From Zanthoxylum bungeanum (lineage: Eukaryota > Streptophyta > Magnoliopsida > Sapindales > Rutaceae): a stretch of DNA of 64,000 nucleotides. The notes beneath the pieces are model-generated. The model was not told where the DNA came from and did no database searches. It was given only the letters and a program-made list of their open reading frames with translations. The DNA lies in contig SKCR01035557.1 in NCBI GenBank assembly GCA_019454045.1, positions 1-64,000 of the forward strand, given 5' to 3'. This document shows, one piece after another, positions 26,881 to 62,712 of the stretch. Numbering within the stretch: the stretch's first letter is position 1; every line of letters starts with the position of its first letter. A program made the position numbers and the translations under genes.

Positions 26881-29800
26881 TTTTTTTTAGGTTATTTCCA
26901 ACCCAAAATGTTAATTTTGGAACAATATTTATACTAAAATGATGTTTATCATAATTAGTCATTGCCATGGGTATATCATTTGAAGTTATCAGGCTGAAAC
27001 AGCCAAACTCTCAATTGCTTGTCCCTTGCCCCAGCAGACTGACTGTTCTGTAACTTCTGTTACTGTGACACAACAGCCAGCTATTTCCATGGCTTTACCT
27101 CTTCGTGTCTCTCAAAACTGAGATGACCCTTGGTAGATTACTCAGCTGTTTACATCTATGCTTGAGCCTTGGCCCAAATAAATTTCTGAAAAAACCATCT
27201 CAAATGAAGTGGAATTCATTATATTGGTAGAGTTATAGAGCTATAAATTGAAAATAGTGGATTCCACCTTATGAATATGCCACCTCATTTGAATGCTTGT
27301 AGCATTAATTATTATTATCACTATGAAATTATTGATGATTTCACTGCTTGTATTTAACACAGTGACTTAGTGAGATCATGAGTTCGATTGAGGCAATGGA
27401 TGATGCTGCAGAAGTATACAAACCCACAGAAGAATATGTGGAAGAATTGAGAGACCCTCTTGTTGATATTTCTTTAACTGACTCCACTGAGCTTTGGCTC
27501 ATTCAATGGCCTTATAAGCATGTGAGTATCTTGCTTTCTTGTTTTCTTTTTTATCAATGATTTAGCTTCTGTAAAAGGTGTAGAACACTGAATGGCGAAT
27601 GCTATTTATTATACATTCATTTTCTGAGAATATTTTATTGTATCAGCTTAATCATTAATGGTGGTTGTTTGTGATGTCATCTCATTGGGATATTAGTTTG
27701 CTGGTTGTTTTATTATTTATCTTTTCAGATGCCTGATTTTGATGGAAAAGAATTGTCAATTGAGCTCTGTGGCAATGGACGGTTGGGCAGTTTTGAGGAT
27801 TCATCTGGTATTTGTGAACTAATAAATAACTTTATATGCATATACACACTCAATTAATAATGTGCATGATAGTGCAACCCTTGCATCTTTTATAAATTGA
27901 TTTGTGTTGATTCTTGGAAACTGTTATATAGATTCATCTGTGACTATTATGTATTGCTGTTGTAGGAAAAGCATATGATGTACTCAGCAATGACTTTCAA
28001 GAGCCAGATGAAATGGTTTTTCTTAGCTCTCCAGCAGAGCCAAAAATTGGTATGCATTTTAATGATCATTCTTTCTTTCCTTATATTCTTATATATGTTC
28101 TCTCTCTCTTCTTTTTTTTTGTTCCTTTCGATCTTTATTCTTACATCTGTCACGGTGATGGTTTATTGCTGTTCTTTTTAATCTTTATAAATGTTCACAC
28201 GATTATATAAATTTTTTCACTGTCACATCAGTAAACCAAGCCTAGGTGTAGATTTACAACCATCTATTTGTCCTCAGATTAAGCCTTTGAGAGAAGTTTT
28301 AGTTTTGAAAGTGCTCTATAGTGTCCAGGCAAGTATGTTCACATACTTTTGTTTAAGAGTGAGTATAAGAGTGAGTAAATTATTTCCTCTGAATTCTATG
28401 TGTTAATGGTGTCTATATAACTGTTAATTTGTTCAACCTTGTTTAAGAGTGACTAAATTATTTCCTCTGAATTCTCTTTGTTAATGGTGTCTATATAACT
28501 ACAGTTTGAAATAAGCTAAGATCCTATGGCTGATTCTGGGTTCCTGTGAATCCTTACAGATAGAAAATAGTTGTCTTTGGGAAAGAGAAGGTAGCCAAAT
28601 TCCCAAATCCTTACAGAGTGCATTAGATTCATTGTCTCATCTCTCTTATGGATTCTATGGTTGCAAAGAAGCAACTGTATCTTTAATAAGAATAGAAATT
28701 ATATGCGTCTTGTGGAGAGAATTCATCATTTAGCTTCATAATGGTTTCAAGAATTGTCAAGATCTATCTTTCATTTTTTTTTTAGATTGATATATTTTTG
28801 GATTAATGGAGGTTTTGAGATAGTTTTTTTTTTATAGATTTATATATTTTTGGGTTAATAGAGGGATGGATAGATTTATATTTTTAGTGTATTTTGTGTG
28901 TAAAATTGGTTCCCCTCCTTTATTTTTGGGTTTCTTTGCAGAAATCTAGTCCACCGTAATATATTCTTGTCTGATTTTGTATGTTTGATGCTTAGATATT
29001 GCATTTATATTCAGACTATTCTTTTATTTATGTATTGACTCGGTTAATCATCAACTTTGAACCTATTTTGATCGTTTAATCTTTACTGATTACAGTTATT
29101 ACCTTTGTTCTGCTGCTAATTTTTATAAAGATGCCTGAACTTTGTGAACCCAGAGATATGTTGCGAATGTGTGTATCTGTTTGTGCTGACATCATAGTTT
29201 ACTTTGATGTTAGTTGGTAAGATTTCACGGCGGGTGTCCCTCGTTCATTACCCTGAACCTAAAGAACTAGAAGAACTCAACACCAACAAATTCAGACAAT
29301 TGTATTCGACATCCAGTGGAGCTTCAATGTCAAATTCAGCCCATCGCTTTGCGAGTCCTTCACAAAGTAGTTGGCGAAGAAACTCAGAGTCAACGAGGGA
29401 GCATTCATCCTACACTCGTAGTAGTGGATACAAAAGTATTTTGTCTGAAGGTGGGGAGCAATCAAAGCCTCCAAAACGTCGACATGCCCATGAACCCAGT
29501 CATTCAACAGACCATTCAGCAGGGCGTCACAGTGAAGTTACCTCTTTAGGGTCCTCAGAGCATCAACAGAAATCAAAGAGAAGAATAAAATCTGAGGAGT
29601 AAGGTTGCTTTCCATCTTTTCTTCACATGCAACTTCTCTTCTTGACAGTATGCCAAATGTTTCTTGTACAATCTAATTTATAGAGCTATTTGTTTCGATC
29701 ATTCACATAATTGGTAAAAAACAAGAAAATATGGAAGCTGCTTTATTTTAGGTTATTTGTACTTCATTGCATCTTTTATATCATATAATATTTAAACTTT

Positions 29801-30342
29801 TATCAGAGGTTATTGGTGGTTATGTTCTGTAGCATGCCTTATGGGTGGTTTTTAAAAATATTAAATTTTAATTTTTGATTTTAAAATAAAATAAAATAAA
29901 ATAAAAATAAAGGATCGGTCGGTCTGGTTTCGATGGTTTTGATTCTTCTTTTGAGATTTGGTTTTTGAGACTTGATTGGATCAAACTCAAGGTTGATTTT
30001 TTGGATTAAACTCAACACCGATTTCTGACCGACCCGACCGATCAGATTTTTAAAACATAGTTTGTACCCATGGACGGGAAGGAAGAAAAGACAGACGGAG
30101 CTGTGGCTGACTGACTGATGCCATCATTGAAGGAAATTGTTGTCTGTCAGACCAATTAGAAGTTGTGTCCTCAGATTAAAATTGATCATCCCCTCACTCC
30201 TCGCTTGGCACCCGGCCACGCCCCCGTCTCCTTGTTTATTTACCACAATACCTCTATCAATATGTAAAATGACTCATTCAATTATTATATATATTACAAA
30301 ATTTATATATTTATATATATTAATTTAAAAATAATTATATAC
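26881..30342 (+). repeat. segmental duplication, copy 2
   Basis: Bases 26881-26968 match the left arm of the inverted repeat at about 10197-10284, then join directly to the sequence matching 11188 onward. The block then follows copy 1 to 30342, without the MITEs and the Mutator patch in intron 3. The join at 26968 shares a few bases (GG) with both parents, as in end-joining repair. Confidence 0.86.
27378..29602 (+). CDS. Mediator-associated protein 2-like, copy 2
   Basis: Exons 27378-27521, 27729-27807, 27966-28049 and 29214-29602 have the same splice sites and phases as copy 1 and encode 231 residues. Compared with copy 1, the changes are E21V, L59I, E89D, one Q-to-E and one R-to-G in the Ser/Arg-rich tail, and a single synonymous change in the coding sequence. 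Intron 3 is 1.16 kb, probably nearer the ancestral size. About 1 kb upstream of the ATG the sequence is still shared, so both copies may have similar promoters. Function is as for copy 1: an accessory nuclear transcription protein, inferred from family resemblance. Nothing in the sequence shows that this copy is inactive. Confidence 0.82.
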
Positions 30343-38920: not shown

Positions 38921-38925
38921 GGTAC
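38921..38925. other. target duplication of B, left copy (GGTAC)
   Basis: GGTAC here is repeated at 46669-46673 on the far side of element B. Removing B and one copy restores continuous RNase H sequence of element A at this point. Confidence 0.88.
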
Positions 38926-39744
38926 TGACCGGCGTAATCACACGCGTATAACGCAAGTGCACGTATCGTTCAAGTAATATAAAAATATCGATCCCACGAG
39001 GACTTAATTCCTACTGTTGTTATTAATTGTTGATACTATTTATTTACATGTATCTAATTGTATGGAGAAAAAAATTGATTGCTTTGGTTGGTTGAATGTG
39101 GAATTGCTTAATTAAAATAAAAATAAAATAAACAAAAGAAAATACTAAGGAAAATTACAAAAGACTTAAAAGATCTAGGGTCGTGACTCCACACAATACT
39201 GTTAAAAAGATGAATTGATTCTCTTATTTATGTGTATTAATTCAGTTTGCTAACCTGGAACACGAAAATATGCAAAAGCCTCTTCCGATGGTCAGACGCA
39301 AATACCCAGTATAACCCAATTGAACCATATTCCTATGTCAACCACATCACCCTGGATTCATTAAGTTTAAGTTCCAATTATGGCTACCCACGCCCGACAT
39401 GTATATTCCTATCCTGTAAGGAAATCTATTAAATGATTATCTATCCTCAAGGAAGATCGTGAGCTATTAAGTCTAAGGCTGAAACCTAAAATCCCTATGT
39501 CTAGTTCATTTTAGATTTACCACATCAATCCTATTGGTGATCAGGCAACATGAAGCATTAAGACTAAGACTTAATAAACAACCTAAAGAATTACCCATAA
39601 AAAGAAAAATCAATTATTAAGTGTGGATATTGTGTTTTATCACTTCCCTAGAATGAAAATAAAATGCTGGGGTTAGGGGATCCACTTTTACTATTTATAA
39701 TTTAGAAATATCCCTTACTATAATATAAAATTTTACGGTGATAG

Positions 39745-39930
39745 CCAACCAGCCATGTAGGCGGTATTCCTTATTAAGTCAGATTTAAATTAAGTCCAAC
39801 CAGCCATAAATGTGGTATTATTATTTGTTCATAAACCAACCATATAGGCGGTAATTATCTGTCACCTAAAGACCAGCCATATAGGCGGTGCCACATTATG
39901 CCAAATAAATAAAACCAGCCATTAAGGCGG
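39745..39930 (-). repeat. five GGCGGTA/ACCAGCC repeats in LTR B
   Basis: Five copies of ACCAGCCATATAGGCGGTA-like words spaced 30-50 bp apart; the same motif appears in inverse orientation in element C's LTRs (51215-51415, 61615-61815). Conservation between otherwise diverged LTRs hints at a functional element. Confidence 0.8.
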
Positions 39931-40249
39931 TAATTCCTTTTAGTGAATAATAAATTTTATATTATAATTAAGAGAGATTAATCTAAATTAAAATATTAAA
40001 AGCTTCACCCTTCCCCAAGTGGAAAATTAACTACTGAACATAAAAAAAGAAAGGAGAAGAAGAAGAGAACTACTAATATTACTGAAAATAAAAATGCATA
40101 AATTAAATACTTAAAATAAATACAAACAAGATGCAATCCTTAAATTCCTTACAAAACCTAAGGAAAGCATGAGAATTACAAATGAAATGGCTTGGTATTT
40201 ATAGAAAAACCTAAAGGCTTCCACCAATCTCTCCACCGATTGCTCCACG

Positions 40250-40365
40250 AATTGCTCCACCAAACACTCCACCAAACATGCCACAAGACATGGCATCAAA
40301 CATGGCACCAAACATGGAACCAAACATGGCATCAAACATGGCACCAAACATGCAAGCATGTTTGG
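40250..40365 (-). repeat. CATGGCACCAAA tandem array in LTR B
   Basis: About eight 10-12-bp units (AACATGGCACCA, AACATGGCATCA) ending in an AACATGCAAGCATGTTT palindrome. It lies in the U3 part of the LTR, upstream in transcription sense. It is shorter in the other LTR (46130-46200). Confidence 0.82.
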
Positions 40366-40837
40366 TGGAAGTTTGACAATTTTTATTTTTTTTATTTTAT
40401 TAATTTTATTTTATATTTTGTAAATGACTATAGTAATTACACAAAATATACTGTATTGTTCATCAATTTCGGCCATGAAAAATTCAGAATTCGAAATTAT
40501 TTTGACTTTCAAAGTTGTAGATCTTCGAGTCTTCTTTAATCTGCAACTTGAATCAGCTCAATCGGACATCGGAAGAAAAAGTTATGGCCAAAATACGAAA
40601 ATTGCGCAAAATTGGAAATTTTGACTGCACTTCGTGACGCGTACAGTAAAATTTCATTTTTGACCATTTTTCCTCCGGATTTCATTGTTTTAGCCCCGAG
40701 TTGATTCCATTAAGTCCTAATATTATTTTTATCTACAAAATATACAAAAACACATCAAAACGTTCATAAAACTCGAGAAACTATACAAAATATTAGGTTA
40801 AATGAGTTGGAAATAATGATATAATTACCACTCATCA

Positions 40838-41640: not shown

Positions 41641-42197
41641 CTTTTTTTTTCTCTTTTTTTTAACTCCATTGCCATTTATAGATGCTTCCTCCAATTAAAC
41701 TATAACACTGAATATTACAAACTTTTCAATTACAACTCATGTCCGTATGTTACTATGCATATTGATAATACCTGCCAACTGAGTATATAAAGATTCATTT
41801 TAGTCAGTTTTATGGAGAATTCACAAATTAGATAATTTAAAAGGAAATAAACAAAAAGTAACTTATTTCAAAAAAGGGTTTGAGATAAGTATCAGGAGTG
41901 GAAACTCCTTGCACAACTATCTTTCACCAATTTTACCTTTTTAGTCAAAATAAAAACACAAAAACGTAAAATATTTTGTAATTTTTGAAAAAATTTCAAT
42001 TTTTTTTTTGTATTTTACGAAAAAAAATTGGACTAAAAATAAAATAAGAAAAACAAGATACGAATTAACTATTCCCCTCCCCCAAACCTAAATGAGACAT
42101 TGTCCCCAATGTCTTAAACAGTAAAAAAAGAGTTTAGAAAATCGTACCTGGTTAGTTGAAATACGGAAAACTAAAGGTTCAGATCCAGATTTATCTT

Positions 42198-42824
42198 TCA
42201 CTTTTTACCACGATCATCCTCAGACCATTTAATTTTAGAAAGGACAGGGTCAATTTGTGGTTCAAATGCCAAGATTTGGTTGAGTAAATCCCGGGCAGTT
42301 CTGGCTGTGAAGAGGAGTTCGTTCATAGGTTTTGTTACGAACCCATTTCTCCGGTTGTCATCAAGAAACACACAAAGAAAATCATAAAATCTCTCAACGT
42401 TAAACAATCCAAGCGTTTCTGGTGTATGTTCAGGTTCGCCCAAGATAGCGCTATAAAAATTTCCTCCAATGTGCCCAAGCCTCCTGGTAGAGCAATAAAA
42501 GCATCTGCATGGTTAATTCATTTCCACTAGTCGCTTTGACATTCCTGGCACGAGCAATTCCTCTCCGTTTGATGGTCCTATCAGATTCGCCTCCGCCAAA
42601 GGTTTTGGGATGATTCCCAAAACTGGACTGCCCCCGTCATGTACAGCCTTTGAAACAATTCCCATCAGTCCAAGATTGCCTCCGCCGTAGATCAAGTGCA
42701 TATTCCGTTCAGCAATGACTCGACCCAATTCATGTGCTGCCTCTATGTATTGTGGTTTAGTACCAACACTGGTACCGCAAAATACACAAATGGTTTCAAC
42801 TCATCTTCTTGAAGTGGCTTCCAT
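42198..42824 (-). pseudogene. LOG-like phosphoribohydrolase carried by element B
   Basis: Two frames together resemble LOG, the enzyme that releases active cytokinin bases from their riboside monophosphates. The first part contains RNMHLIYGGGNLGLMGIVSK and PVLGIIPKPLAEANL; the second contains [17 protein letters not shown] and ends WSEDDRGKK. The region between encodes a [13 protein letters not shown] signature in a shifted frame. A TGA at codon 8 (42801-42803, CGA in element C) and a one-base insertion near 42510 disable it. It has no introns. Family length is about 215 residues, which this matches. It lies in the same position relative to the LTR as in element C. Confidence 0.87.
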
Positions 42825-43359: not shown

Positions 43360-44652
43360 TCAAGGAGGTTTCAGCGTCATTTTGGATGTCTGATTAAAGA
43401 CAATCCTGTGAGCGTTGCTTTTGAAGGGTCTCTTCCAACGGTGAGGTGGCAAAAAGAATTTTTTCAAAGTCGGTACTTGTGCCACCTTCTTAAACTTTGT
43501 TGCTCCAGCAGTTCCTGAAAATAAAGAAAGAAAATCAGGAGGTCTCGTATGGTGCTTGACTTGGAACGGGATTTCCATTCTGTCAAGTTTCTGGGTGATG
43601 TCTTTGATTTGTATTCCCCAAAATAATGATGTTTCTCTTGAATGCACTGGATCTTCAATAAGTTCAGACATATGCTCCTCCATTTGCTCTGGTTCTTGCT
43701 CCACCTTTTCTTCACAGATGTATTCTAGGATTTTCGCGTTATGTTCTTCATCTGTCATCTGTGAAATGCATGCTCCATAATTATCTGCTTGAAGATGAAA
43801 AGATGTGTCTGACATTAGGTCTTCATCCTCTAATTCGACTGGAATGACTGGTTCAGGTAGACCTTCATCAAACATCATGGTAAAACATGCTCCAAGATCT
43901 TCATTTTGAGGATTGAAAGTTTGATCCTCCGTTGTTGGTGCAGTTGGTACAAATAGATCAGCTTCATCCTCGTCAGTATCTGAATAATAAAAATCAAATA
44001 GAGACTTTGCTGGTTTGTGCTCCTGAACTGATACCTCTGGTTGTTGATACTGCTCAGCCTCATCTTCTAAAGTGTCATTCTGAACTGATTGGTACTCGAA
44101 GGCTTCATCAATGTCATCTGAAAATGGTTCTTGAGGTATGTAGCTCTGATTTTCTGTTAATTGTCTTATTTGATCTGTCATTCTCTGTATGGATTCTGAT
44201 TGTCTCTGGATACTTTCAAGTTGGTTATGGTATGTTTCAAGCATTGTATCCAACTTCTCATCTCTTTTCTTGAACCAATCTTTGAGCATGTTCATCAATT
44301 GTTCTTCCTCTGATGGTTTTCTGGTTGTTGATGAAGATTATAGGTAGATGGTGGATAAGATGGAAAATGGCTCTGTGAAATGTGATGGCTCTTCATACCA
44401 TGAAGGATTTTGATAGCTCTGCCACCCTGAATTGTAGTTATACTCGCAATAATCGCTTGGGTGGTTACCATTACATATGTCACATCTCCACATTGTGTTC
44501 TGTTGAGCAAATGTAGTATTGCTTGGTTCTGGCATCCAGTGATAGTTATTGGGCTGTACAACAGGCCTCAGAAAACCGGACTGTTGCTCCCAAAATTGGG
44601 GTGTATCTTCTTGTAAGGCTCGTAATCTCTCAATCTCCCAGTAGTGTTCCAT
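43360..44652 (-). CDS. element B: gag-derived reading frames
   Basis: The upstream frame (44338-44652) holds a zinc knuckle-like CDICNGNHPSDYC and Trp/Tyr/Asn-rich sequence. The downstream frame (43360-44298) starts with a coiled-coil-like segment (about residues 1-50, LESIQRQSESIQRMTDQIRQ), then an acidic stretch with two ACI/ACF..M..E motifs, and a basic C-terminal tail. The second motif (YGACISQMTDEE) matches TLEACITNMTDSE in element C's gag-pol linker (54600-54640). The two frames are offset by a short frameshift near 44300-44340. The product would be a shortened gag-like protein with no enzymes. Whether it is made is unknown. Confidence 0.65.
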
Positions 44653-44788: not shown

Positions 44789-46668
44789 TGACGGGCGTAA
44801 TCACACGCGTATAACGCAAGCGCACGTATCGTTCAAGTAGTATAAAAATATCGATCCCACGAGGACTTAATTCCTACTGTTGTTATTAATTGTTGATACT
44901 ATTTATTTACAAGTATCTAATTGTAGGGAGAAGGGAATTGATTGCTTTGGTTGGTTGAATGTGAAATTGCTTAATTAAAATAAAAATAAAATAAACAAAA
45001 GAAAATACTAAGGAAAATTACAAAAGACTCAAAAGATCTAGGGTCGTGACTCCACACAATACTGTTAAAAAGATGAATTGATTCTCTTATTTATGTGTAC
45101 TAATTCAGTTTGCTAACCTGGAACACGAAAATATGCAAAAGCCTCTTCCGATGGTCAGACGCAAATACCCAGTATAACCCAATTGAACCATATTCATATG
45201 TCAACCACATCACCCTGGATTCATTAAGTTTAAGTTCCAATTATGGCTACCCACGCCCGACAGGTATATTCATATCCTGTAAGGAAATCTATTAAATGGT
45301 TATCTATCCTCAAGGAAGATCGTGAGCTATTAAGTCTAAGGCTGAAACCTAAATCCCTATGTCTAGTTCATTTTAGATTTACCACATCAATCTTATTGGT
45401 GATCAGGCAACATGAAGCATTAAGACTAAGACTTAATAAACAACCTAAAGAATTACCCATAAAAAGAAAAATCAATTATTAAGTGTGGATATTGTGTTTT
45501 ATCACTTCCCTAGAATGAAAATAAAATGCTGGGGTTAGGGGATCCACTTTTACTATTTATAATTTAGAAATCTCCCTTACTATAATATAGAATTTTACGG
45601 TGATAGCCAACCAACCATGTAGGCAGTATTCCTTATTAAGTCAGATTTAAATTAAGTCCAACCAGCCATAAAGGCGGTATTATTATTTGTTCATAAACCA
45701 GCCATATAGGCGGTAATTATCTGTCACCTAAAGACCAGCCATATAGGCGGTGCCACATTATGCCAAATAAATAAAACCAGCCATTAAGGCGGTAATTCCT
45801 TTTAGTGAATAATAAATTTTATATTATAATTAAGGAAGATTAATCTAAATTAAAATATTAAAAGCTTCACCCTTCCCCCAGCGGAAAATTAACTACTGAA
45901 CATAAAAAAAGAAAGGAGAAGAAGAAGAGAACTACTACTATTACTGAAAATAAAAATGCATAAATTAAATACTTAAAATAAATACAAACAAGATGCAATC
46001 CTTAAATTCCTTACAAAAACCTAAGGAAAACATGAGAATTACAAATGAAATGGCTTGATATTTATAGAAAAACCTAAAGGCTTCCACCAATCTCTCCACC
46101 GATTGCTCCATGAATTGCTCCACAAAACACTCCACCAAACATGCCACAAGACATGGCATCAATCATGGCACCAAATATGGCACCAAACATGCAAGCATGT
46201 TTGGTGGAAGTTTGACAATTTTTATTTTTTTTATTTTATTAATTTTATTTTATATTTTGTAAATGACTATCGTAATTACACAAAATATACTGTATTGTTC
46301 ATCAATTTCGGCCATGAAAACTTCAGAATTCGAAATTATTTTGACTTTCAGATCTTCGAGTCTTCTTTAATCTGTAACTTGAATCAGCTCAATCAGACAT
46401 CGGAAGAAAAAGTTATGGCCAAAATACGAAAATTGCGCAAAATTGGAAATTTTGACTGCACTTCGTGACGCGTACAGTAAAATTTCATTTTTAACCATTT
46501 TTCCTCCAGATTTCATTGTTTTAGCCCCGAGTTGATTCCATTAAGTCCTAATATTATTTTTATCTGCAAAATATACAAAAACACATCAAAACGTTCATAA
46601 AACTCGAGAAACTATACAAAATATTAGGTTAAATGAGTGTGAAATAATGATATAATTACCACTCATCG
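44789..46668 (-). repeat. 5' LTR of element B
   Basis: 1880 bp, starting TGACGGGCGTAATC and ending CCACTCATCG, so the last base differs from the canonical CA end of the other copy. It differs from the 3' LTR by point changes, a shorter CATGGCACC array and a few small deletions. Confidence 0.92.
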
Positions 46669-46673
46669 GGTAC
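46669..46673. other. target duplication of B, right copy (GGTAC)
   Basis: Matches 38921-38925. It separates B's LTR from the RNase H sequence of element A. Confidence 0.88.
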
Positions 46674-49405: not shown

Positions 49406-50162
49406 CTATTCTTCATCACTAATAGAGAAATCTAGCCAAAAGTTCTTCCCTTGTTCGGTTTCATCTTCACTGTTACTATCCCCGATTCCCAGGCAAAATG
49501 CTTGAGGGTGAAAGGATTTGAGGATAAGGCTTTCGGGTAGGCCGAAATTTATCATATAGGTTAGTGGTGGTACGACACGGTAGTTGGGTAAGGGGTTTCT
49601 GTGTGTGTCAGGCTGTTCTGTTTCAAGGTCGGGTATCATTTTGGAGTCTATAAGGTCTTGGATTTCATGGCGAAGTCGGGGCGCAATTGTCGGTGTCATG
49701 GCCCTTTTGTTGGTGAAAGTGGCAGTAAAGGTTTAGGTTATAATGTGATGGCGGGGGATTGGGGAGTGGTTGGGCTTCCAAGGGTTTCAAAAGTCCCTGC
49801 CTCTTCAATTTCTCTAGCACCTTAGACAGAGGTCTCCCTAAGTTGGAAAATCTCTGATTCCGGATGGCAGCAATCTCCGCAGAAACAGGTTTAGTACCCG
49901 ATGTTCCCCCAATAGGCCTCATACTTAGGCCATGGAAACCTCTTATTTTCTGCTTCTTCTTCCTCAATATCCATGACAATTTCCCTCAACTGTCGAAAGT
50001 CAGTGATCATGGAAGTCATCCTCCTCAACTTACTATAGATGGAGGGCTTGGTGCCCTTGATAATCATTTTAATCTGGTCATTCTCCGAGGGCCTAGTCTG
50101 CATCTTTAAAAGCTGGCTCCTCCAGCGGTCTACATATTCCTTGAAGCTTTCTTCCGGCTTCT
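49406..50162 (-). pseudogene. element A: gag, C-terminal half
   Basis: The frame from the C insertion point (KPEESFKEYVDRWRSQLLKM) continues the gag capsid region. Downstream frames hold LGRPLSKVLEKLKRQGLL, a CHFHQQKGHDTDNC zinc knuckle and a variable linker. Frames shift twice between 49665 and 49979. The N-terminal half is at 62713-63310, beyond element C. Confidence 0.82.
50158..50162. other. target duplication of C, left copy (CTTCT)
   Basis: CTTCT here is repeated at 62708-62712. Joining the flanks with one copy restores element A's gag frame (TKQKPEESF). Confidence 0.9.
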
Positions 50163-50339
50163 TGATGAGTGGTAAATCTATCATTATTTCCCACTCATTT
50201 AACCTAATATTTTGTATAGTTTCTTGAGTTTTGTGAATATTTTGATGTGTTTTGTGTTATTTTGTAGATAAATAAAGTTTCATGACATTCTGGAGGTGAT
50301 TTGGGGCAAAACAGGAAAAATTGGCAAAAAGGGCATTTT

Positions 50340-50870
50340 GGTCATTTTGGGAGTCGCGACGCCCAATCCCTTGGCGTCGCGACGCCTAACGTGCGCCGTG
50401 GTCTGCTAATGTACACCGGGTCAACGGGTCAGAATTTGAGAAGTTTGACTTTGCTAACGTGCGCCGTGCCAAGTGTCACCATCACAGTCGATCTACTAAT
50501 GCGCGCCGTGCCACGTGTCATCATCCTACGGTGCCGAAAATAACTATTTCCACGTGTGCCACATGTCATCCTACGTGTCGCCACATCATCCGGTCAACGA
50601 GTCAACTCTGCCACGCGTCTTGCCACGTCATTATCCACGTCATCAGGTCAACCGAGTCAACATGCCACGTCAGCATCAGCCAATCACAGCGTGACACGTG
50701 TCGTAATCCTACGGTGCCGATAATTGATCTTAGCCGCCTTGCGACGTCAGTGCCACATCATCGCCATGTCAACATAATAATTGAGCTCTTAGTTGCCTCG
50801 CCACATGTCGCCTTATCTTCTTATCTGAATTGCCACGTGTCAAAATCAGAGCATGCCACGCCAACTGCAG
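50340..50870 (+). promoter_or_regulatory. U3 array of ACGT-core motifs in LTR C
   Basis: I count nine ACGT cores here (for example CCACGTGTCA, CACGTGTG, ACACGTGTC, GACGTCA) and about a dozen in the other LTR (60841-61240). CACGTG and ACGTGTC are binding cores for plant bZIP and bHLH factors (G-box, ABRE). Two perfect GGCGTCGCGACGCC-like palindromes flank the array. Element B's LTR lacks it. Confidence 0.6.
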
Positions 50871-50926
50871 CTGGCGTAGCGACGCCAAAGGCCTTGGCGT
50901 CGCGACGCTGAAACCCCACCGAGGCC

Positions 50927-50934
50927 TATAAATT
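50927..50934 (+). promoter_or_regulatory. TATA box of element C, 5' LTR
   Basis: TATAAATT follows the GC-rich U3 array, as in the other LTR (61323-61330), and is the best candidate core promoter for the element's RNA. Confidence 0.65.
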
Positions 50935-52312
50935 CAGCTCGAGATTTCAGATTTTGTTGTACCATTTTCTCCCATTTCTTTGATGTAAATAGGGAGTTCT
51001 TATCTCTCTAAGTTTATTTTAATTTTAGTTTTGTAATTAATTTTAATTACGTTCTGTAATAATAGTAATTTACTTTCTTTACTTTTTACAGTTTTTACTA
51101 TTCACCATGAGGTAACTTCCTCAGCTATGGTGAAAGGTAATTCTTTTACTATTGCTAGGTAGATTAATCTTCCTTAAAAATAATATATTCACTATTTAAA
51201 ATTTGACTTAAAAAGGATACCGCTATATTGGTCGGTTGGTAATTGAATTTTAATATGATTTAAACCTGACTAATCAAGGATACCGCTAGATTGGTCGGTT
51301 GGTAATTTAATTTTGGTTCCGCCTTTATGGCTGGTTTATGGACAAATATTACCGCCTTAATGGCTGGTTGGACTTAATTTGACTTAATCAGGATACCGCA
51401 GATTGGTCTGTTGGTAATATTATCACAAGTTTATATATTATTTTATGGGAGATATCTAAATTATTAGTAGTAAAAGTAATTCATTTTACCTTAGCATTTT
51501 ATTTTATTGTAATTTACTTTTCAGTATTTACTTTACCGTATTTTTACTTATATCTTTTATTAGCCCAAGTTATGTGTTGTAACTAAATTAGTTATCTGGG
51601 GTTGTGATGACTTTTAATATCACCGGTTTATAAGGGGTTAGATTATAGTTTGGGTATTATAAAGATTTATTTATTGAGTCTTAATCTTAATGTTTTTTCA
51701 TTAACTGACCATTAATAAAATTGATCTGGTAAATCTAAAATGAACTAGACATATGGATTTTAGGTTTCAGCCTTAGATTCAATAGCCCACGATCTTCCTT
51801 GAAGATAGATAACTCTTTAATAGATTTCCTTACAGGATAGGAATATACCTGTCGGGCGGGGATAGCCTTAATTGGAACTTAATCTTAATGAATCTAGGTA
51901 ATTTGGTTGACATAGACATATGGTTCAATTGGATTATACTAGGTATTTGTAATTGACCATCGACAGAGGCTTTCACATAATTTTGTGTTCCAGGTTAATA
52001 AATCAATATATTACCCAACTTTAAGATAACCACTTCATCTTTAAAATAATATTAAAAGAAATCACAACCCTAAATAGTTTTTAATATTGAATTTTCTTAA
52101 AACCTACTTTCGACAATTTTATTTACTTGCTTTTAAATTTAGAATCGTCACCATTTCAAATCAATCAATCAACCTGTTAGATACTAGTAAACATTTGACC
52201 TCATAAAATTAATAGTTTAGTTATTAAGTCCTCGTGGGATCGATACTTTTTATACTACTTGAATGATACGTACGCTTGCGTTATACGTGTGTGTTTACGC
52301 TGGTCAAGTTTT

Positions 52313-52330
52313 TGGCGCCGTTGCTGGGGA
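52313..52330 (+). other. primer binding site of element C (tRNA-Asp)
   Basis: TGGCGCCGTTGCTGGGGA is the complement of plant tRNA-Asp 3' end with one change (CT for CC). It lies six bases after the LTR. Confidence 0.87.
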
Positions 52331-52414: not shown

Positions 52415-53979
52415 GTGTTTCAGGTCATCACATTCTTAATGAGACGAACCGGAAGCTTTGAACTTCGACCGCTTGACCCAGAAATTGAAAGAACCATCAG
52501 ACAGTTGAGAATGGAAAGGCGAGAAGGCCAAGAAGCTTTAGTCAACATGGAACCTGAACCGTTGGAGGTTGCACTACCAATTCCCATTCGAGACAGAACC
52601 ATTCCGGTGATTGACAGACTCATTTCTTGCATTGTACTTCCTCCATTACCAGCAAATGCAGGTGACATCAAAACATGCATTCAGATGATTCAGCAGTCAG
52701 TTCAGTTTGGGGGGAATGCAACTGAAGATCCTAATGCCCACATCAGCAACTTCCTGAAAGTTTGTGGCACTTTTAATTACAACCGAGAAGCTGAAGAAGC
52801 AATGAGATTGCGTGTTTTCCCATACTCCTTGAAAGACAGAGCTAAAGCTTGGCTACATTCACTACCAGCAGGTTCTATCACAACTTGGAACACTTTAGCC
52901 ACCAAATTTCTTGCAAAGTATTTTCCACCAGCCAGAACTGGAAAACTGAGGAATGACATCACATCCTTTGTACAACAAGACTCTAAAACTCTCTACGAAG
53001 CTTGGGAAAGGTATAAAGATTTGCTCCGGAAATGTCCTCACCATGAGATTCCAAAATGACTTCAAGTCCAAACTTTCTATAATGGACTTTCTGGAATAAC
53101 GAGAACCACAATAGATGCTGTTGCTGGAGGAGCTTTAATGGCAAAAGGAGAAGATCAAGCCTGGGAACTAATCGAAGAAATGGCTAACAACAATTCCTTG
53201 TGGCCAACAGAAAGGAGCATGATCCAAAGAATTGCAGGAATTTATGAAAGTGGAGCCAATACAGCAGTCAACACCAAGCTAGATCATATATGCAAATTCA
53301 TGGAGACTCTTACCACTAGATCCACAAGTTCACCATATGGAGGAGCACCAGAGTCGAACCAACTTGAAGAGACGGTGAATTTTGTCAATAATTTCAACAG
53401 ACAGGTGAACAATCCATATTCCAACACCTACAACCCAGGGTGGAGGAATCATCCTAATTTTTCATGGAGCAACAATTCAGGCAACAGTGGAACTATCCAC
53501 CACCTGGATTCCAGCAATCGAACAAAGGCCAGGAGTAGAAAAATGAACCAGGAATAGCAGAAGTGCGGGCTCAATTAAAAAAGTACGATGCCATCTTTCA
53601 GAGCCAATCAGCTTCCATCAAAGCACTTGAGAATCAAATCGGAAAACTGGCCAATGCTCAGTGTTACAGACCACCAGGAAATCTTCCCACCAATACAGAA
53701 CTCAATCCAAAGAACCGGGGGAAGGAGCAATGTCAAGCCATTACTTTGAAAAGCGGTACTGAAATCAACAAAGATGTTGGAATCAAGATGTCCAAAGAAG
53801 AAGTTCCAGAAGAAGCTGAGAAACAAATGGAGGAAAAAGAAGCAAAGGAAAAAGAACCAGAAAGAATCATTCCACCTCCACCTTTTCCTCAGCGTCTTCA
53901 GAAAAACAAATTGGACAAGCAGTTTTGTCGATTCCTGGAGGTTTTCAAAAAGCTGCACATCAACATCCCATTTGCATAA
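52415..53979 (+). pseudogene. element C: gag
   Basis: Capsid motifs are clear: VCGTFNYNREAEEAMRLRVF, YSLKDRAKAWLHSLPAGSIT, TKFLAKYFPPARTGKLRND and WERYKDLLRKCPHHEIPK. A TGA at 53057-53059 (probably from TGG) ends the first frame. The next (53138-53557) has NNPYSNTYNPGWRNHPNFSW, an Athila hallmark, then a small frameshift leads to a frame (53563-53979) with a coiled-coil-like LKKYDAIFQSQSASIKALEN and a Lys/Glu-rich stretch. A TAA (from CAA) stops it at the edge of the protease. Gag would form the particle. Confidence 0.9.
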
Positions 53980-54992: not shown

Positions 54993-55780
54993 AAACCTAC
55001 AGTGGAACATCAACGGAGACTCAATCCAATCATAAAGGAAGTCGTGAAGAAAGAAATCATCAAATGGTTAGATGCTGGCATCATTTACCCCATCTCATAC
55101 AGCAGTTGGGTGAGTCTTATGCAGTGTGTACCAAAGAAATGATGAATTACTGTGATTACCAATGAAAAGAATGAGCTAATCCCAACAAGAACAGTGACTG
55201 GATGGAGAGTATGCATGGACTACAGGAAACTGAACAAAGCCACGAGGAAGGACCATTTTCCGTTACCATTTATTGACCAGGTGTTATACAGACTGGCAGG
55301 ACATGAGTTCTATTTCTTTCTGGACGGATATTCAGGGTACAATCAGATTGCCATCGCACCAGAAGACCAGGAGAAAACTACATTTACTTATCCCTATGGT
55401 ACTTTTGCTTTCCGCAGGATGCCATTTGGATTATGTAATGCCTCTGCAATTCCATACTTCACATCAGCGTTGCATGATGGCCATTTTCTCAGACATGCTG
55501 GAGCAGAGTATGGAGGTTTTTATGGATGATTTTTCTGTGTTTGGAGATTCTTTTGACCATTGTTTGCAAAATTTGGAACATGTGTTACAAAGGTGCGAAG
55601 ATACAAAACTAGTACTCAACTGGGAAAAATGCCACTTTATGGTGCAAGAAGGAATTGTTCTTGGACACCGGATCTCACAAAAGGGGATTGAGGTAGACAA
55701 AGCAAAGATAGAGACAATTGAAAAACTCCCTCCACCAACATCAGTAAAAGGTATTCGAAGTTTTCTTGGACATGCAGGTT
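54993..55780 (+). pseudogene. element C: reverse transcriptase
   Basis: Contains GWRVCMDYRKLNKATRKDHF, FPLPFIDQVL, FFLDGYSGYNQIAIAPEDQE and RRMPFGLCNA in one frame (55152-55529), then MMAIFSDMLEQSMEVFMDDF with the active-site FMDD (YVDD position) in another. A one-base frameshift near 55460 and several stops before 55152 break it. Confidence 0.92.
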
Positions 55781-56400
55781 TTACAGGAGATTTATCAAAG
55801 ACTTTTCCAAAATTGCTAAACCTCTATGCAATCTTCTGGAGAAGGATGTGCCTTTCAACTTCACCAAAGAATGCCAGGAAGCTTTTGAATCTTAAAACAG
55901 AAGCTGGTATCTGCCCCCATCATTGTAGCACCAGACTGGACCCTTCCATTTGAAGTGATGTGCGATGCTAGTGATTTTGCTGTAGGTGCAGTTTTGGGAC
56001 AACGTAAAGCAAAAGATTTTCCACACACATTTACTACTCCAGCAGAACTCTGAATGAAGCTCAACTCAACTACACAAACCACTGAAAAGGAGTTGCTCGC
56101 AGTTGTGTACGCTTTTGACAAATTCGTTCCTATCTGCTAGGTCCCAAAGTGGTGGTCTACACAGATCATTCAGCAATCAAATATTTGATCACGAAGAAAG
56201 ATGCCAAACCCAGATTGATCCGTTGGATACTTCTTCTGCAAGAATTCGACGTGGAGATCGAGACAGGAAAGGACAGAGAATCAGGTGGCAGATCATCTAT
56301 CGAGGCTCGAGAATGGAGAAACAGCTGACAAAGATCTGTCAATCAAAGAAACTTTTCCAGATGAACAGCTGTTTGCCATGAAACAAACAGGAAGTCCCTT
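55781..56400 (+). pseudogene. element C: RNase H
   Basis: [17 protein letters not shown] and [16 protein letters not shown] are the RNase H core; the sequence shifts frame several times afterwards, with [13 protein letters not shown] marking the end. Multiple stops. Confidence 0.82.
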
Positions 56401-57680
56401 GGTATGCTGACTATGTCAACTACATTGTGTCAGGAAAATGGCCGTTGGAATGGACAACTCAGCAACAGAAGAAGTTCTTCAAAGAAGTCAAGCACTATGT
56501 CTGGGATGAACCGTACATGTTCAAACGATGTGCTGATCAATTATTGAGACGATGTGTTCCACATGAGGAATCAACAGTGTTTTGCAGCACTGTCATTCAT
56601 CACCATATGGCGGACACTTCAGCGGAAACAAAACTTTAGCCAAAGTCCTACAATCAGGTTTGTTCTGGCCCACTCTTTTTAAAGATGCTTATCTTTTTGC
56701 TTTTCAATGTGACAGGTGCCAGAGAATGGGAATATTTCGAGGAGAAAACGAATGACCGTTGCAAAACATTCTAGAAGTGGAAATATTCGATGTATGGGGT
56801 ATTGATTTCATGGGACCCTTTATTCCATCATTCGGAAACCTGTACATCCTGGTTGCTGTAGACTACGTCTCCAAATGGGTCGAAGCAATTGCACTATCAT
56901 CCAATGATTCAAAAGTGGTGATCAAATTCCTGAAAAAGAATATTTTCACTCGGTTTGGAACACCTCGGGCAATTATCAGCGATGGTGGCTCGCATTTCTG
57001 CAACAGATACTTTGATGCACTCCTATCCAAATACGGAGTTACTCACAAGGTTGCCACAGCTTACCATCCACAGTCAAATGGACAGGTGAGGTTTCAAACA
57101 TGGAAATCAAAAGAATCCTAGAAAGAACCGTTGGATCAACAAGGAGGGACTGGTCAACAATAGATGATGCATTATGGGCCACCGGACAGCTTACAAGACA
57201 CCCATTGGTATGTCCCCATATCGATTGGTGTTTGGGAAAGCGTGCCATCTACCAGTTGAGCTTGAGCACAAGGCGTACAGGGCACTGAAGAAGTTGAATC
57301 TTGATTCACAAGTTGCAGGAGAGAAAAGACTTCACCAACTCAACGAATTGGAGGAATTTCGCTTACAGGCTTATGAAAACGCCAAATTGTACAAGGAAAA
57401 GACCAAAAAATGGCATGACCGAAAAATAGTTCACAGATTGTTGGAACCAAGGCAACATGTGTTATTGTACAATTCGAGATTGAAACTTTTCCCTGGAAAG
57501 TTGAAATCTAGGTGGTCAGGTCCATTTGTGATCACTCAGGTTTTACCTTATGAAGCTGTTGAGTTACTGGATCCCAATACCAACAACACATTCAAAGTTA
57601 ATAGTCAGCGTGTCAAGCACTACTGGGGAGAATCATTTGAGCGACAAAAAGAAAGTGTCACACTTTCAGATCCAGCCTAA
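56401..57680 (+). pseudogene. element C: integrase
   Basis: A degraded zinc-binding region (56430-56720) precedes the catalytic core: D in [16 protein letters not shown] and D in [15 protein letters not shown], then YHPQSNGQV, where the frame breaks before the catalytic Glu. The last frame (57174-57680) has [20 protein letters not shown] and the C-terminal [19 protein letters not shown]. The intact enzyme would insert element DNA. Confidence 0.9.
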
Positions 57681-57798: not shown

Positions 57799-58365
57799 TT
57801 GCATATTAAGACATTTCAAGAAGGAAGAAGCTCTCGCAAATCTTCACAAGCAATTTCCTTCTCTCCCTCAAAAATCTCTGATAAAAGTCTACAAAACTCG
57901 CTTGGAACGGATGAGGTTACTGACATCCATGGTATTCCTAATGATATTCGTTGGGTAATTGAAGCACGAGTCCGATTGGCAGGTGAGTCTTCTGACTCTT
58001 TTATTTCACATCTGCCTGGTTTTGGAAAGCACCTATCAAAGAAACGTAGAGCTAAGCAAATGGGTGTTTGTTATAAATGTGCACGCTGGAATTGCAATAC
58101 TCGTTGTCGTTCGTTAGGAATGGTGTCTGATAATCGAGAAGACAAAATTAAATTCATTAGAGATGGCTTGAGTAAGGAGTCTTTAGATGATATATCTTCG
58201 ACTCTTGAGACGCATCCCAGTGGATATGTTCACATAGTCTTTCGCAAATTACATACACAATTTCAAAAAGAAAGACAATTGTTAAGTCTCGGGAATCTGA
58301 CTCAAAAAGACCATGTTTGCCAATTTATAAGAAAATTGGATGGGAAGTTTGTCCCTGACGCATAG
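57799..58365 (+). CDS. element C: unrecognised cargo ORF with Cys cluster
   Basis: An intact 188-codon frame between integrase and the LOG-like gene. I do not recognise the protein. It is basic (many Lys/Arg), has a GVCYKCARWNCNTRC cluster (four Cys in 12 residues, about residues 91-105) that could bind zinc or nucleic acid, and ends KLDGKFVPDA. There is no transmembrane segment, so it is not a usual env-like protein. The ATG at 57799 lies after a T-rich stretch; FSLPG-type upstream codons are not open. A degraded counterpart exists in element B (43060-43322). It could be a captured host exon set or a retroelement accessory gene. Confidence 0.6.
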   Translation: MHIKTFQEGRSSRKSSQAISFSPSKISDKSLQNSLGTDEVTDIHGIPNDIRWVIEARVRLAGESSDSFISHLPGFGKHLSKKRRAKQMGVCYKCARWNCNTRCRSLGMVSDNREDKIKFIRDGLSKESLDDISSTLETHPSGYVHIVFRKLHTQFQKERQLLSLGNLTQKDHVCQFIRKLDGKFVPDA

Positions 58366-58609
58366 ACGTCGATCAAGCCGTTACTATTCTTGTAAATATT
58401 ATATCTCTTTGTCTTTTCCTAATAATTGTAATTTGTTTTGTTGTTTTCTTTTATTTTCTCCTACATGATCCGTAACTTTTTGACTATCACGATTTGTTTA
58501 ACTAATAATTGTCATTTGGCAGGTACTAGTGCTATTATTTTTACTCACCTCTTTCAGGTATTATAAATTCAACTAATCATTGCACTTTTGAAGACATCCA
58601 GAGTAAAAC
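58366..58609 (+). other. spacer before the LOG-like gene
   Basis: T-rich spacer ending in CTCACCTCTTTCAGGTATTAT, which fits a splice acceptor (CTTTCAG) about 50 bp ahead of the ATG. Element B has the same spacer with CACCATTTTCAGGTAC. Confidence 0.5.
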
Positions 58610-59265
58610 ATGGAAGCCACTTCAAGAAGACGAGTTGAAAACATCTGTGTGTTTTGCGGTAGTAGTGTTGGTACTAAACCACAATATGTAGAAGTAGCAC
58701 AGGAATTGGGTCGAGTCTTAGCTGCAAGGAATATGCACTTAATATATGGCGGAGGAGATCTTGGACTTATGGGGATCGTTTCAAAGGTCGTACATGAATG
58801 AGGCAGTCACGTTTTGGGAATCATTCCAAAACCCTTGGCAGCAGAGGCAATCTATTTGAACCATCAAACGGAGAGGAACTGATCATGCCAGGTATGTCTG
58901 AACGACTAGTGGAAATGATTAACCGTGCTGATGCTTTTATTGCTTTGCCAGGTGGCTTGGGCACATTGGAGGAAATTTTTATAGTACTATCTTGGGCGAA
59001 GCTGAACATACACCAGAAACCAATTGGACTACTCAACGTTGATGGATTTTATGATTTTCTTTGTGTGTTTCTTGATGATGCTCGGAGAAATGAGTTTGTG
59101 TCAAAACCTTTGAAAGAACTCATTTTCAGTGCCAGAACTGCTCCGGATCTAATAGACCAACTCATAGCCTATGAACCACGAGTTGACCCTATCCTTTCAA
59201 AGATAAATTGGTCCGAGGACGACCGTGGTAAGAGGCGTAGGATTAATCTGGATCTTAACATTTAA
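58610..59265 (+). pseudogene. LOG-like phosphoribohydrolase carried by element C
   Basis: Resembles LOG, the cytoplasmic and nuclear enzyme that converts cytokinin riboside 5'-monophosphates to active cytokinin bases. Motifs: ICVFCGSSVGTKPQYVEVA at about residues 12-30, NMHLIYGGGDLGLMGIVSK at 41-59, and the signature [13 protein letters not shown] with KPIGLLNVDGFYDFL in the second part. A TGA at 58799-58801 and a frameshift near 58850 split it into two frames (58610-58801 and 58798-59265). The total, about 218 codons, matches the family. There are no introns, whereas plant LOG genes usually have several, so capture through spliced RNA is likely. The C-terminus (WSEDDRGKRRRINLDLNI) has a basic tail. 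Element B carries a relative. Confidence 0.9.
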
Positions 59266-60558: not shown

Positions 60559-62707
60559 TGATGAGTGGTAAATCTATCACTATTTCCCACTATTTAACCT
60601 AATATTTTGTATAGTTTCTTGAGTTTTGTGAATATTTTGATGTGTTTTGTGTTATTTTGTAGATAAATAAAGTTTCAGGACATTCTAGAGGTGATTTGGG
60701 GAAAAAACAGGAAAAATTGGCAAAAACAACATTTTGGTAATTTTGGGAGTCGCGACGCCCAATCCCTTGGCGTCGCGACGCCTAACGTGCACCGTGGTCT
60801 GCTAATGTGCACCGGGTCAACGGGTCAGAATTTGAGAAGTTTGACTTTGCTAACGTGCGCCGTGCCACGTGTCACCATCACAGCCGATCTGCTAACGCGC
60901 GCCGTGCCATGTGTCATCATCCTACGATGCCGAAAATTACTATTTCCACGTGTGCCACGTGTCATCCTACGTGTCGCCACGTCATCCGATCAACGAGTCA
61001 ACTCTGCCACGCGTCTTGCCACGTCATTATCCACGTCATCAGGTCAACCGAGTCAACATGCCACGTCAGCATCAGCCAATCACAGCGTGACACGTGTCGC
61101 AATCCTACGGTGCCGATAATTGATCTCAGCCGCCTTGCGACGTCAGCGCCACATCATCGCCACGTCAGCATAATAATTGAGCTCTTAGCCGCCTCGCCAC
61201 ATGTCGCCTTATCTTCTTATCCGAATTGCCACGTGTCAAAATCAGAGCATGCCACGCCAACTGCAGCTGGCGTAGCGACGCCAAAGGCCTTGGCGTCGCG
61301 ACGCTGGAACCCCACCGAGGCCTATAAATTCAGCTCGAGATTTTAGATTTTGTTGTACCATTCTCTCCCATTTCTTTGATGTAAATAGGGAGTTCTTATC
61401 TCTCTAAGTTTATTTTAATTTTAGTTTTGTAATTAATTTTAATTACGTTCTGTAATAATAGTAATTTACTTTCTTTACTTTTTACAGTTTTTACTATTCA
61501 CCATGAGGAGGTAACTTCCCCAGCTAGGGTGAAAGGTAATTCTTTTACTATTGCTAGGTAGATTAATCTCCCTTAAAAATAATATATTCACTATTTAAAA
61601 TTTGACTTAAAAAGGATACTGCTATATTGGTCGGTTGGTAATTTAATTTTAATCTGATTTAAACCTGACTAATCTCGGATACCGCCAGATTGGTCGGTTG
61701 GTAATTTAATTTTGGTTCCGCATTTATGGCTGGTTTATGGACAAATATTACCGCCTTAATGGCTGGTTGGACTTAATTTGACTTAATCAGGATACCGCCA
61801 GATTGGTCGGTTGGTAATATTATCACAAGTTTATATATTATTTTATGGGAGATATCTAAATTAGTAGTAGTAAAAGTAATTCATTTTACCTTAGCATTTT
61901 ATTTTATTGTAATTTACTTTTCAGTATTTACTTTACCGCATTTTTACTTTATGTCTTTTATTAGCCCAAGTTATGTGTTGTAACTAAATTAGTTATCTGG
62001 GGTTGTGATGACTTTTAATATCACCGGTTTATAAGGGGTTAGATTATAGTTTGGGTATTATAAAGATTTATTTATTGAGTCTTAATTTTAATGCTTTTTC
62101 ATTAACTGACCATTAATAAAATTGATCTGGTAAATCTAAAATGAACTAGACATAAGGATTTTAGGTTTCAGCCTTAGATTCAATAGCCCACGATCTTCCT
62201 TGAAGATAGATAACTCTTTAATAGATTTCCTTACAGGATAGGAATATACCTGTCGGGCGGGGGTAGCCTTAATTGGAACTTAATCTTAATGAATCTAGGT
62301 AATTTGGTTGACATAGACATATGGTTCAATTGGATTATACTAGGTATTTGTAATTGACCATCGACAGAGGCTTTCACATAATTTTGTGTTCTAGGTTAAT
62401 AAATCAATATATTACCCAACTTTAAGATAACCACTTCATCTTTAAAATAATATTAAAAGAAATCACAACCCTAGATAGTTTTTAATATTGAATTTTCTTA
62501 AAACCTACTTTCGACAATTTTATTTACTTGCTTTTAAATTTAGAATCGTCACCATTTCAAATCAATCAATTAACCTGTTAGATACTAGTAAACATTTGAC
62601 CTCATAAAATTAATAGTTTAGTTATTAAGTCATCGTGGGATCGATACTTTTCATACTACTTTAACGATACGTACGCTTGCGTTATACGTGTGTGTTTACG
62701 CTGGTCA
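60559..62707 (+). repeat. 3' LTR of element C
   Basis: 2149 bp, starts TGATGAGTGG and ends CTGGTCA. Matches 50163-52306 with point changes and small indels, including an extra AGG in the CCATGAGGAGG region near 61503. Confidence 0.94.
61323..61330 (+). promoter_or_regulatory. TATA box of element C, 3' LTR
   Basis: TATAAATT, as in the 5' LTR. From here it would read into element A's gag region on the plus strand (antisense to A). Confidence 0.6.
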
Positions 62708-62712
62708 CTTCT
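62708..62712. other. target duplication of C, right copy (CTTCT)
   Basis: Identical to 50158-50162 at the other side of element C. Confidence 0.9.

What the first reader, a model, noticed from the sequence alone, without database searches (positions are those of the whole stretch)
58610..59265. Athila-like retrotransposon carrying an intronless LOG (cytokinin-activating) gene
Between integrase and the 3' end of element C, and fully inside its LTRs, lies a full-length LOG-like coding region with the FCGSS, YGGGDLGLMG and PGGLGTLEE motifs. It has no introns, unlike typical plant LOG genes. A second, independently placed family member (B) carries the same gene in the same position. This means the capture predates both insertions and the gene spread with the element. 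A mobile element that delivers a cytokinin-activating enzyme from an LTR promoter would be a striking way to alter host growth or cell division. I do not know of a described case, but I cannot search.
Basis: partly seen in the sequence, partly recalled or inferred. Interest (0 to 1): 0.88.

Follow-up and report, generated by a model that had tools for sequence, protein, structure and literature searches.

The report
LOG-family gene inside plant retrotransposon
A family of plant jumping genes carries its own copy of a LOG-type enzyme gene, kept by selection even in copies that have lost their own copying machinery, but with pocket residues changed so that it may no longer make the plant hormone cytokinin as ordinary LOG enzymes do.

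Summary
The LOG-like sequence at 58610-59265 is real, intronless and lies between integrase and the 3' LTR of element C; element B carries a homologous copy. Both window copies are broken. Capture-and-spread holds in the 3.96-Gb host assembly: 150 of 150 scored Lysine_decarbox matches pass cut-off (147 with no stop inside the match), 30 of 30 fetched loci share the element flank downstream of LOG, 19 of 30 have a full-length frame. Intact copies show dN/dS 0.24, also in elements lacking the reverse transcriptase-integrase core (0.21, 0.25). Relatives from Populus, Reevesia, Paulownia and Xanthoceras join the window copies in one clade apart from the canonical LOGs sampled. Catalytic Arg and Glu are mostly kept, but in the 16 intact host copies three proposed prenyl-pocket residues, invariant in 109 canonical LOGs, are replaced, so ordinary cytokinin activation is doubtful. 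A second ORF beside LOG matches carlavirus-type nucleic-acid-binding models. LOG (YgdH) domains in Citrus and Populus Gypsy elements are already in print; retention without pol, the altered pocket and the NABP-like partner are what I add.

The parts
50163..52306 (+). 5' LTR of element C (TSD CTTCT at 50158-50162)
   Evidence: LTR pair K2P 0.027
52313..52330 (+). primer-binding site TGGCGCCGTTGC..., tRNA-Asp-like (assignment recalled, from no call)
   Evidence: read
52415..53979 (+). gag region (Retrotrans_gag in the first ORF), frame broken
55152..57680 (+). reverse transcriptase, RNase H region, integrase (RVT_1 and rve matched), frames broken
57799..58365 (+). ORFx: NABP-like accessory ORF (Viral_NABP / Carla_C4 above cut-off in intact relatives; 20.5 bits, below the cut-off of 23, in C itself)
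58543..58557 (+). branch-point-like ACTCAC, pyrimidine tract and CAG: candidate splice acceptor 52 nt before the LOG ATG (inference)
58610..59265 (+). LOG-like cargo gene of C, one stop and one frameshift
60559..62707 (+). 3' LTR of element C (TSD CTTCT at 62708-62712)
44789..46668 (-). 5' LTR of element B (TSD GTACC at 46669-46673)
43360..44652 (-). gag-like ORFs of B (zinc-knuckle-like CDICNGNHPSDYC in the 104-aa ORF; no Pfam match to the 312-aa ORF); no pol. Tentative
42171..42824 (-). LOG-like cargo gene of B, two stops and two frameshifts
38926..40837 (-). 3' LTR of element B (TSD GTACC at 38921-38925)

Best explanation
A Ty3/Gypsy-type (Athila-like) retrotransposon lineage of eudicots captured an intronless plant LOG gene between pol and the 3' LTR, the place that env-like genes hold in Athila, and has kept it as an accessory gene of its own. 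Shown: LOG is inside the element at many places of the host genome, its frame has been under purifying selection, and it persists in derivatives that lost the RT-integrase core and in some that also lost the neighbouring NABP-like ORF. Inferred: the protein is made from a spliced subgenomic RNA (conserved acceptor-like site before the ATG) and helps the element that encodes it in cis, since pol can be borrowed but LOG is kept. Inferred: it is an active nucleotide phosphoribohydrolase whose base/prenyl pocket has been remodelled, so its substrate is probably not the usual cytokinin ribotide.
For: Genome: 150 of 150 scored PF03641 hits over cut-off, 3 with a stop inside the match; 150 of 150 scored hits to canonical LOG3 span nearly the whole protein without introns, 133 with no stop inside (my count of rows). 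Linkage: 30 of 30 LOG loci align to C's region downstream of LOG and 23 of 30 reach the 3' LTR start within the fetched flank; 9 of 10 NABP-picked loci carry LOG. Selection: pooled omega 0.238 (0.172-0.334) over 16 distinct intact copies; B versus C 0.22 (0.14-0.34); shared variants N/S 77/96 against singletons 146/88, Fisher p 4e-4, 36 copies broken ones included. Retention without pol: of 20 upstream regions, 10 lack the RT-RNaseH-integrase core, 2 are B-type, 4 have RT, RNase H and integrase, 4 other; LOG omega 0.207 in 7 pol-deleted and 0.250 in 7 B-type intact copies; three pol-less elements have perfect TSDs and LTR K2P 0.019-0.026. Fold: AF2 model of the relative P0003, pLDDT 84, best match LOG3 2a33, TM 0.94 by target. 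Pocket: R99 141/165 and E122 161/165 kept; K100 not K in 163/165; E125 changed in at least 157/165 (roles from PMC4979012). Acceptor-like site: 26 of 29 strict, AG kept in the other three.
Against: LOG-picked loci are the best-scoring hits, biased to intact frames, and the omegas use intact copies only; in 10 loci picked by NABP, 0 of 8 near-complete LOG copies are intact. Both window copies are dead. Some loci on different contigs are identical or nearly so (L005/L006, L018/L019, L012/L013), so the assembly may hold both haplotypes and counts of places may be inflated. R99 is lost in 24 of 165 and K100 in 163 of 165 relatives; in CgLOG alanine at the AMP-binding and catalytic residues almost abolished activity (S19A excepted), so part or all of the clade could be inactive. 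No transcript data. Benefit in cis is inferred: recent loss of pol from once complete elements, or recombination among elements, could also leave a low omega.
Confidence: 0.6

Rival explanations
1. The retro-LOG is an ordinary cytokinin-activating LOG: it raises active cytokinin in the cells where the element is transcribed, favouring division or meristem identity and so germ-line entry of new copies.
For: LOG fold and family; catalytic Arg/Glu kept in 141 and 161 of 165 relatives, His97 kept in 46 of 165; Xanthoceras relatives keep all ten checked residues in 4 of 4.
Against: H97, K100 and E125 of the proposed prenyl site are S in 16, L in 15 (Q in 1) and I in 16 of 16 intact host copies, while 109 of 109 canonical LOGs scored keep H, K, E; K100 is also an adenine contact in CgLOG.
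Confidence: 0.2
2. LOG is kept for a non-enzymatic role (for example a structural or nucleotide-sensing partner of Gag), with the catalytic site drifting.
For: Pocket residues changed across the clade and R99 lost in 24 of 165 relatives, yet omega is low.
Against: E122 kept in 161 of 165 relatives; R99 and E122 kept in 16 of 16 own intact copies.
Confidence: 0.15
3. Neutral hitch-hiking: LOG is a passenger that was amplified with a successful element and has no role.
For: Both window copies and all 8 near-complete copies of the NABP-picked sample are broken.
Against: Omega 0.24 with bootstrap upper limit 0.33; shared variants more constrained than singletons in a set that includes broken copies; relatives 50-85% identical in the list, 217 aa long in 91 of the 205 listed.
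Confidence: 0.05

Closest known systems
YgdH/LOG-domain Gypsy elements of Citrus and Populus (Alvarado-Marchena et al. 2022, PMC9289625: abstract, passages and section 12 seen; it cites Steinbauerova et al. 2011, not held and not seen)
   Same: LOG-family domain inside plant Gypsy elements; Populus relatives fall in the same LOG clade here
   Different: In the section I read no frame, selection, pol-less derivatives, pocket or NABP partner is described; the host here is unnamed
Arabidopsis Athila elements with gag+env but no pol (PMC2410132, passages seen)
   Same: Extra gene after pol; pol-less derivatives keep gag and the extra gene; env omega about 0.20-0.30 in the table passage
   Different: The extra gene is LOG, with or without an NABP-like ORF, instead of env
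Phalaenopsis Gypsy elements with an AlkB-type m6A demethylase (PMC9289625, same parts seen)
   Same: Host-type enzyme adopted by a plant Gypsy lineage
   Different: Different enzyme; there activity was assayed in vitro, here nothing is assayed
Canonical plant LOG (At LOG3/2a33, At5g11950/1ydh)
   Same: Fold, similar length, catalytic Arg/Glu
   Different: About 40-50% identical, separate clade, prenyl-pocket residues replaced, mobile and intronless

Membership tests
LOG family (TIGR00730 / PF03641) | family profile and PGGxGTxxE motif | tested here: met
   L010 copy: PF03641 127.3 bits (cut-off 27), TIGR00730 169.1 (cut-off 96.35); motif
LOG family (TIGR00730 / PF03641) | catalytic Arg99 and Glu122 (CgLOG numbers) | tested here: met
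   16 of 16 own intact copies; 141 and 161 of 165 relatives
Cytokinin-activating LOG | proposed prenyl site Met96, His97, Lys100, Glu125, Trp129 | tested here: not met
   own intact copies: M 16, S 16, L 15 + Q 1, I 16, W 16 of 16
Cytokinin-activating LOG | NCBIfam equivalog NF058542 above cut-off 300 | tested here: inconclusive
   L010 119.4 bits, but canonical Arabidopsis LOG P0121 also only 132.4
Cytokinin-activating LOG | hydrolysis of cytokinin ribotides | not testable with these tools
   needs an enzyme assay
LTR retrotransposon, Ty3/Gypsy | two LTRs, TSD, PBS, PPT, gag, RT before integrase | tested here: met
Athila lineage | RT/RH/INT phylogenetic placement | not tested
   no reference domain set on hand
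Athila lineage | tRNA-Asp-like PBS, long LTRs, extra ORF after pol | tested here: inconclusive
   seen but not exclusive, PBS assignment recalled; PF03078 not hit in the gag ORFs scanned, a domain found in only 16% of Athila elements (PMC6317226, passage)
Viral_NABP / Carla_C4 (ORFx) | Pfam score at or above curated cut-off | tested here: met
   three intact copies 26.8, 24.7, 26.9 (cut-off 23) and 22.7, 20.9, 29.6 (cut-off 20.9); C itself 20.5, below 23; 150 of 150 scored genome hits over cut-off, best 40.5 bits
Viral_NABP / Carla_C4 (ORFx) | silencing suppression | not testable with these tools
   stated for some allexivirus NABPs (PMC12115993, passages)

The most novel reading that the evidence does not exclude
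A eudicot retrotransposon lineage has turned a captured LOG into a dedicated accessory enzyme with a new substrate and pairs it with a plant-virus-type nucleic-acid-binding protein. The two act as an accessory module (nucleotide chemistry plus possible silencing interference), of which LOG is the part needed in cis, so that pol-less elements keep gag and LOG.
Probability: 0.35. Interest if true: 0.85.

Novelty: new variant of a known kind. Interest (0 to 1): 0.62.

Why it matters
It is a tractable case for asking why selfish elements adopt host metabolic enzymes: the enzyme has solved relatives, a small set of changed pocket residues, many natural variants, and natural losses of pol showing what the element cannot do without. 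If the enzyme has a new nucleotide substrate, it would point to a nucleotide-based step in plant retrotransposon control. It also warns that intronless LOG-like gene models, such as those named LOGL10 in Populus, may be element genes and not host hormone genes.

Tried and rejected
LOG as a separate insertion with its own boundaries: rejected, since 30 of 30 LOG loci continue into the same element sequence downstream. Chance match: rejected. Bacterial origin: not favoured (stronger match to plant LOGs), but only two bacterial sequences were in the tree. Donor LOG clade: unresolved; only 21 LOG3-search sequences and At5g11950 stood for host genes, and the genome search with canonical LOG3 listed only near-full-length 47-50% matches, so the host's own LOG genes and their introns were not seen. 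Viral contigs: two scans, nothing. An integrase-picked sample, to ask how many elements lack LOG, could not be drawn because the genome service was busy. Copy numbers were not obtained; 47,331, 58,158 and 19,137 are loose first-look candidates. My regular expression for an NABP-like zinc-finger spacing matched 0 of 5 ORFx copies; the NABP assignment rests on Pfam scores alone. Most ORFx copies in the LOG-picked loci are broken: read in C's frame, 1 of 23 was open for 170 aa or more; in any frame, full-length ones were found in L005/L006/L031, L018/L019 and L026. My expression for the B-type gag zinc knuckle matched in 0 of 6 other B-type loci, so 'gag-like' is tentative.

Rows dropped or assigned: one search used 16 of 19 intact copies (two identical, one near-identical dropped); one search dropped four loci repeating a place or sequence; one search dropped three; one search used the first 150 alignment columns; one search scored 165 of 201 relatives and 109 of 120 canonical proteins (the rest lacked the motif or its flanks). 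The 205 'cargo-like' proteins are defined by search rank; 39 of them were put in the tree. In one search, L003, L007 and L023 were called B-type from a missing or relic ORFx, and L005 and L064 pol-deleted from an identical copy (L006) or a short flank, not from a seen gag-to-integrase junction. The 20 upstream regions were chosen by hand from the 150.

Full report
What is there. Window 58610-59265 is LOG-like over its whole length: its two frames match PF18306 and PF03641 (E 4.2e-29 for the second), the second part matches At LOG3 2a33, and the stretch aligns codon by codon to the intact relative P0003 with 181 of 216 residues identical. It lies 930 bp after the integrase ORFs and 1.3 kb before the 3' LTR of a 12.5-kb element C with 2.1-kb LTRs, a perfect 5-bp duplication and a PBS that looks like tRNA-Asp (recalled). 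The frame in C is broken by a TGA and a frameshift, B's copy by two stops and two frameshifts. B is a separate insertion with its own duplication and without RT, RNase H and integrase. LTR divergence is K2P 0.027 for C and 0.023 for B.

The genome. The window's assembly has 3.96 Gb in 51,709 contigs. With PF03641, 150 of 150 scored matches passed the cut-off, 3 with a stop inside the match; of the 30 fetched, 19 have a full-length frame of 212-222 aa. With canonical LOG3 as query, 150 of 150 scored matches cover nearly the full protein in one frame at 47-50% identity, 133 without a stop inside by my count. These lists hold only the best candidates and may hold both haplotypes of some places, so they say that intact intronless LOG frames are many, not how many copies exist.

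Linkage. All 30 loci fetched align to C's sequence downstream of LOG, and 23 of 30 reach the 3' LTR start within 1.5 kb of flank; 7 do not. Starting instead from the neighbouring ORFx, 9 of 10 loci carry LOG, two of them in one tandem array. In that second sample 0 of 8 near-complete LOG copies are intact: decay is common, and the intact copies of the first sample are a biased draw.

Selection. Sixteen distinct intact copies give a pooled omega of 0.238 (bootstrap 0.172-0.334; 120 pairs, median dS 0.18). B versus C gives 0.22 (dS 0.48). In 36 copies, broken ones included, variants shared by two or more copies are 77 nonsynonymous to 96 synonymous, singletons 146 to 88 (Fisher p 4e-4; site ratio 3.35): constraint acted in lineages that left descendants and relaxes after insertion.

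Architecture. I looked upstream of LOG at 20 places taken by hand from the 150. Ten join gag and the start of the following region directly to the integrase C-terminus (L031-L034, L038, L040, L041, L048-L050); two are B-type (L036, L039); four have RT, RNase H and integrase (L035, L042, L043, L045); four are truncated, nested or unrecognised (L037, L044, L046, L047). Of the 10 loci fetched, five show the B-type gag-like region. LOG omega is 0.207 (0.137-0.315) in seven pol-deleted and 0.250 (0.167-0.376) in seven B-type intact copies (five of these fourteen assigned indirectly, see Tried and rejected). Three pol-less insertions have perfect duplications (GTGAT, CTTGG, GGATT, read) and LTR K2P 0.019-0.026, and their LOG frames are open. 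This resembles Arabidopsis Athila, where pol-less elements keep gag and env, with env omega near 0.2-0.3 (PMC2410132, passages).

Relatives. The first search gave 2041 proteins at E <= 1e-10 (best 120 listed), the top one 84% identical; species-named entries in the list are all Populus. Another search added Xanthoceras, Paulownia and Reevesia, with many loci in the last. In a 72-row tree the 48 cargo-like rows are one side of a branch with 100/98 support, against 21 canonical rows. Retroelement context outside the host was not seen by me except in two indirect ways: the published Citrus/Populus report, and a stretch in two Xanthoceras gene models (P0241, P0242) that resembles C's gag-pol linker (33% identity, E 2.5e-4, tested with the P0241 stretch).

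Active site. With CgLOG numbering (PMC4979012, passages and section 6), the catalytic R99 and E122 are kept in 16 of 16 own intact copies and in 141 and 161 of 165 relatives. H97, K100 and E125, proposed prenyl contacts, are S (16), L (15; Q 1) and I (16) in the own copies; among relatives K100 is not K in 163 of 165, E125 is changed in at least 157, H97 is kept in 46. Canonical LOGs keep all in 109 of 109, and so do 4 of 4 Xanthoceras models. The simplest order is capture of a normal LOG and later change of the pocket; that order is inference.

Expression. ACTCAC, a pyrimidine tract and CAG end 52 nt before the ATG in C; 26 of 29 distinct copies fit a strict pattern and the other three keep AG. 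I read this as a splice acceptor for a subgenomic LOG mRNA; copies are related, so conservation is only suggestive, and no RNA data were available.

The neighbour. ORFx (about 183 aa when intact) lies between integrase and LOG. Three intact copies reach Pfam cut-offs for Viral_NABP and Carla_C4, C's own broken copy does not; 150 of 150 scored genome matches pass, best 40.5 bits, against 0 of 14 control genomes, which are prokaryotes. Omega is 0.25 in five copies chosen for long frames; most copies seen are broken, and B-type elements lack it. Cysteine-rich NABPs of allexiviruses and other plant viruses can suppress RNA silencing (PMC12115993, passages). A role of that kind here is a hypothesis only.

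What is in print. PMC9289625 (abstract, passages, section 12) reports YgdH domains in Gypsy consensus sequences of Citrus sinensis, C. clementina and, without its filter, Populus trichocarpa, and cites Steinbauerova 2011 (not held). PMC7264820 on additional ORFs has no occurrence of lysine decarboxylase or cytokinin. Searches (1 paper; 17; 7; 20 listed of 251; 20 listed of 11,697) showed no other paper on LOG inside retrotransposons in their listings; others (10 listed of 57; 0 papers) showed none on NABP-type ORFs in retrotransposons. The held library is partial and the listings capped.

Verdict. Retention without pol, the changed pocket and the NABP-like partner make it worth following.

Noticed in passing
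window 57799-58365; L005:539-1114, L018:2301-2849, L026:536-1081: ORF beside LOG whose intact copies reach Pfam cut-off for plant-virus nucleic-acid-binding proteins (Viral_NABP, Carla_C4); at least 150 matches over cut-off in the genome.
   Followed up: partly
G000:C23952:418412-429796 (parts in L054, L062): Seven listed NABP hits at about 1.86-kb spacing; the fetched units hold an integrase piece, the NABP-like ORF and LOG: a satellite-like tandem array made from the 3' part of the element.
   Followed up: partly
window 1512-2621: ORF with B3 and ARF_AD domains: part of an auxin response factor gene, apparently a host gene.
   Followed up: no
P0241, P0242 (Xanthoceras sorbifolium gene models): Predicted proteins with two LOG parts joined by a stretch resembling a retrotransposon gag-pol linker; the LOG parts keep the canonical pocket.
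   Followed up: partly
window 11189-16267 and 26968-30148: Another pair of long near-identical repeats (97-99% in most blocks, 90% in one), not part of B or C; no LOG match there.
   Followed up: no
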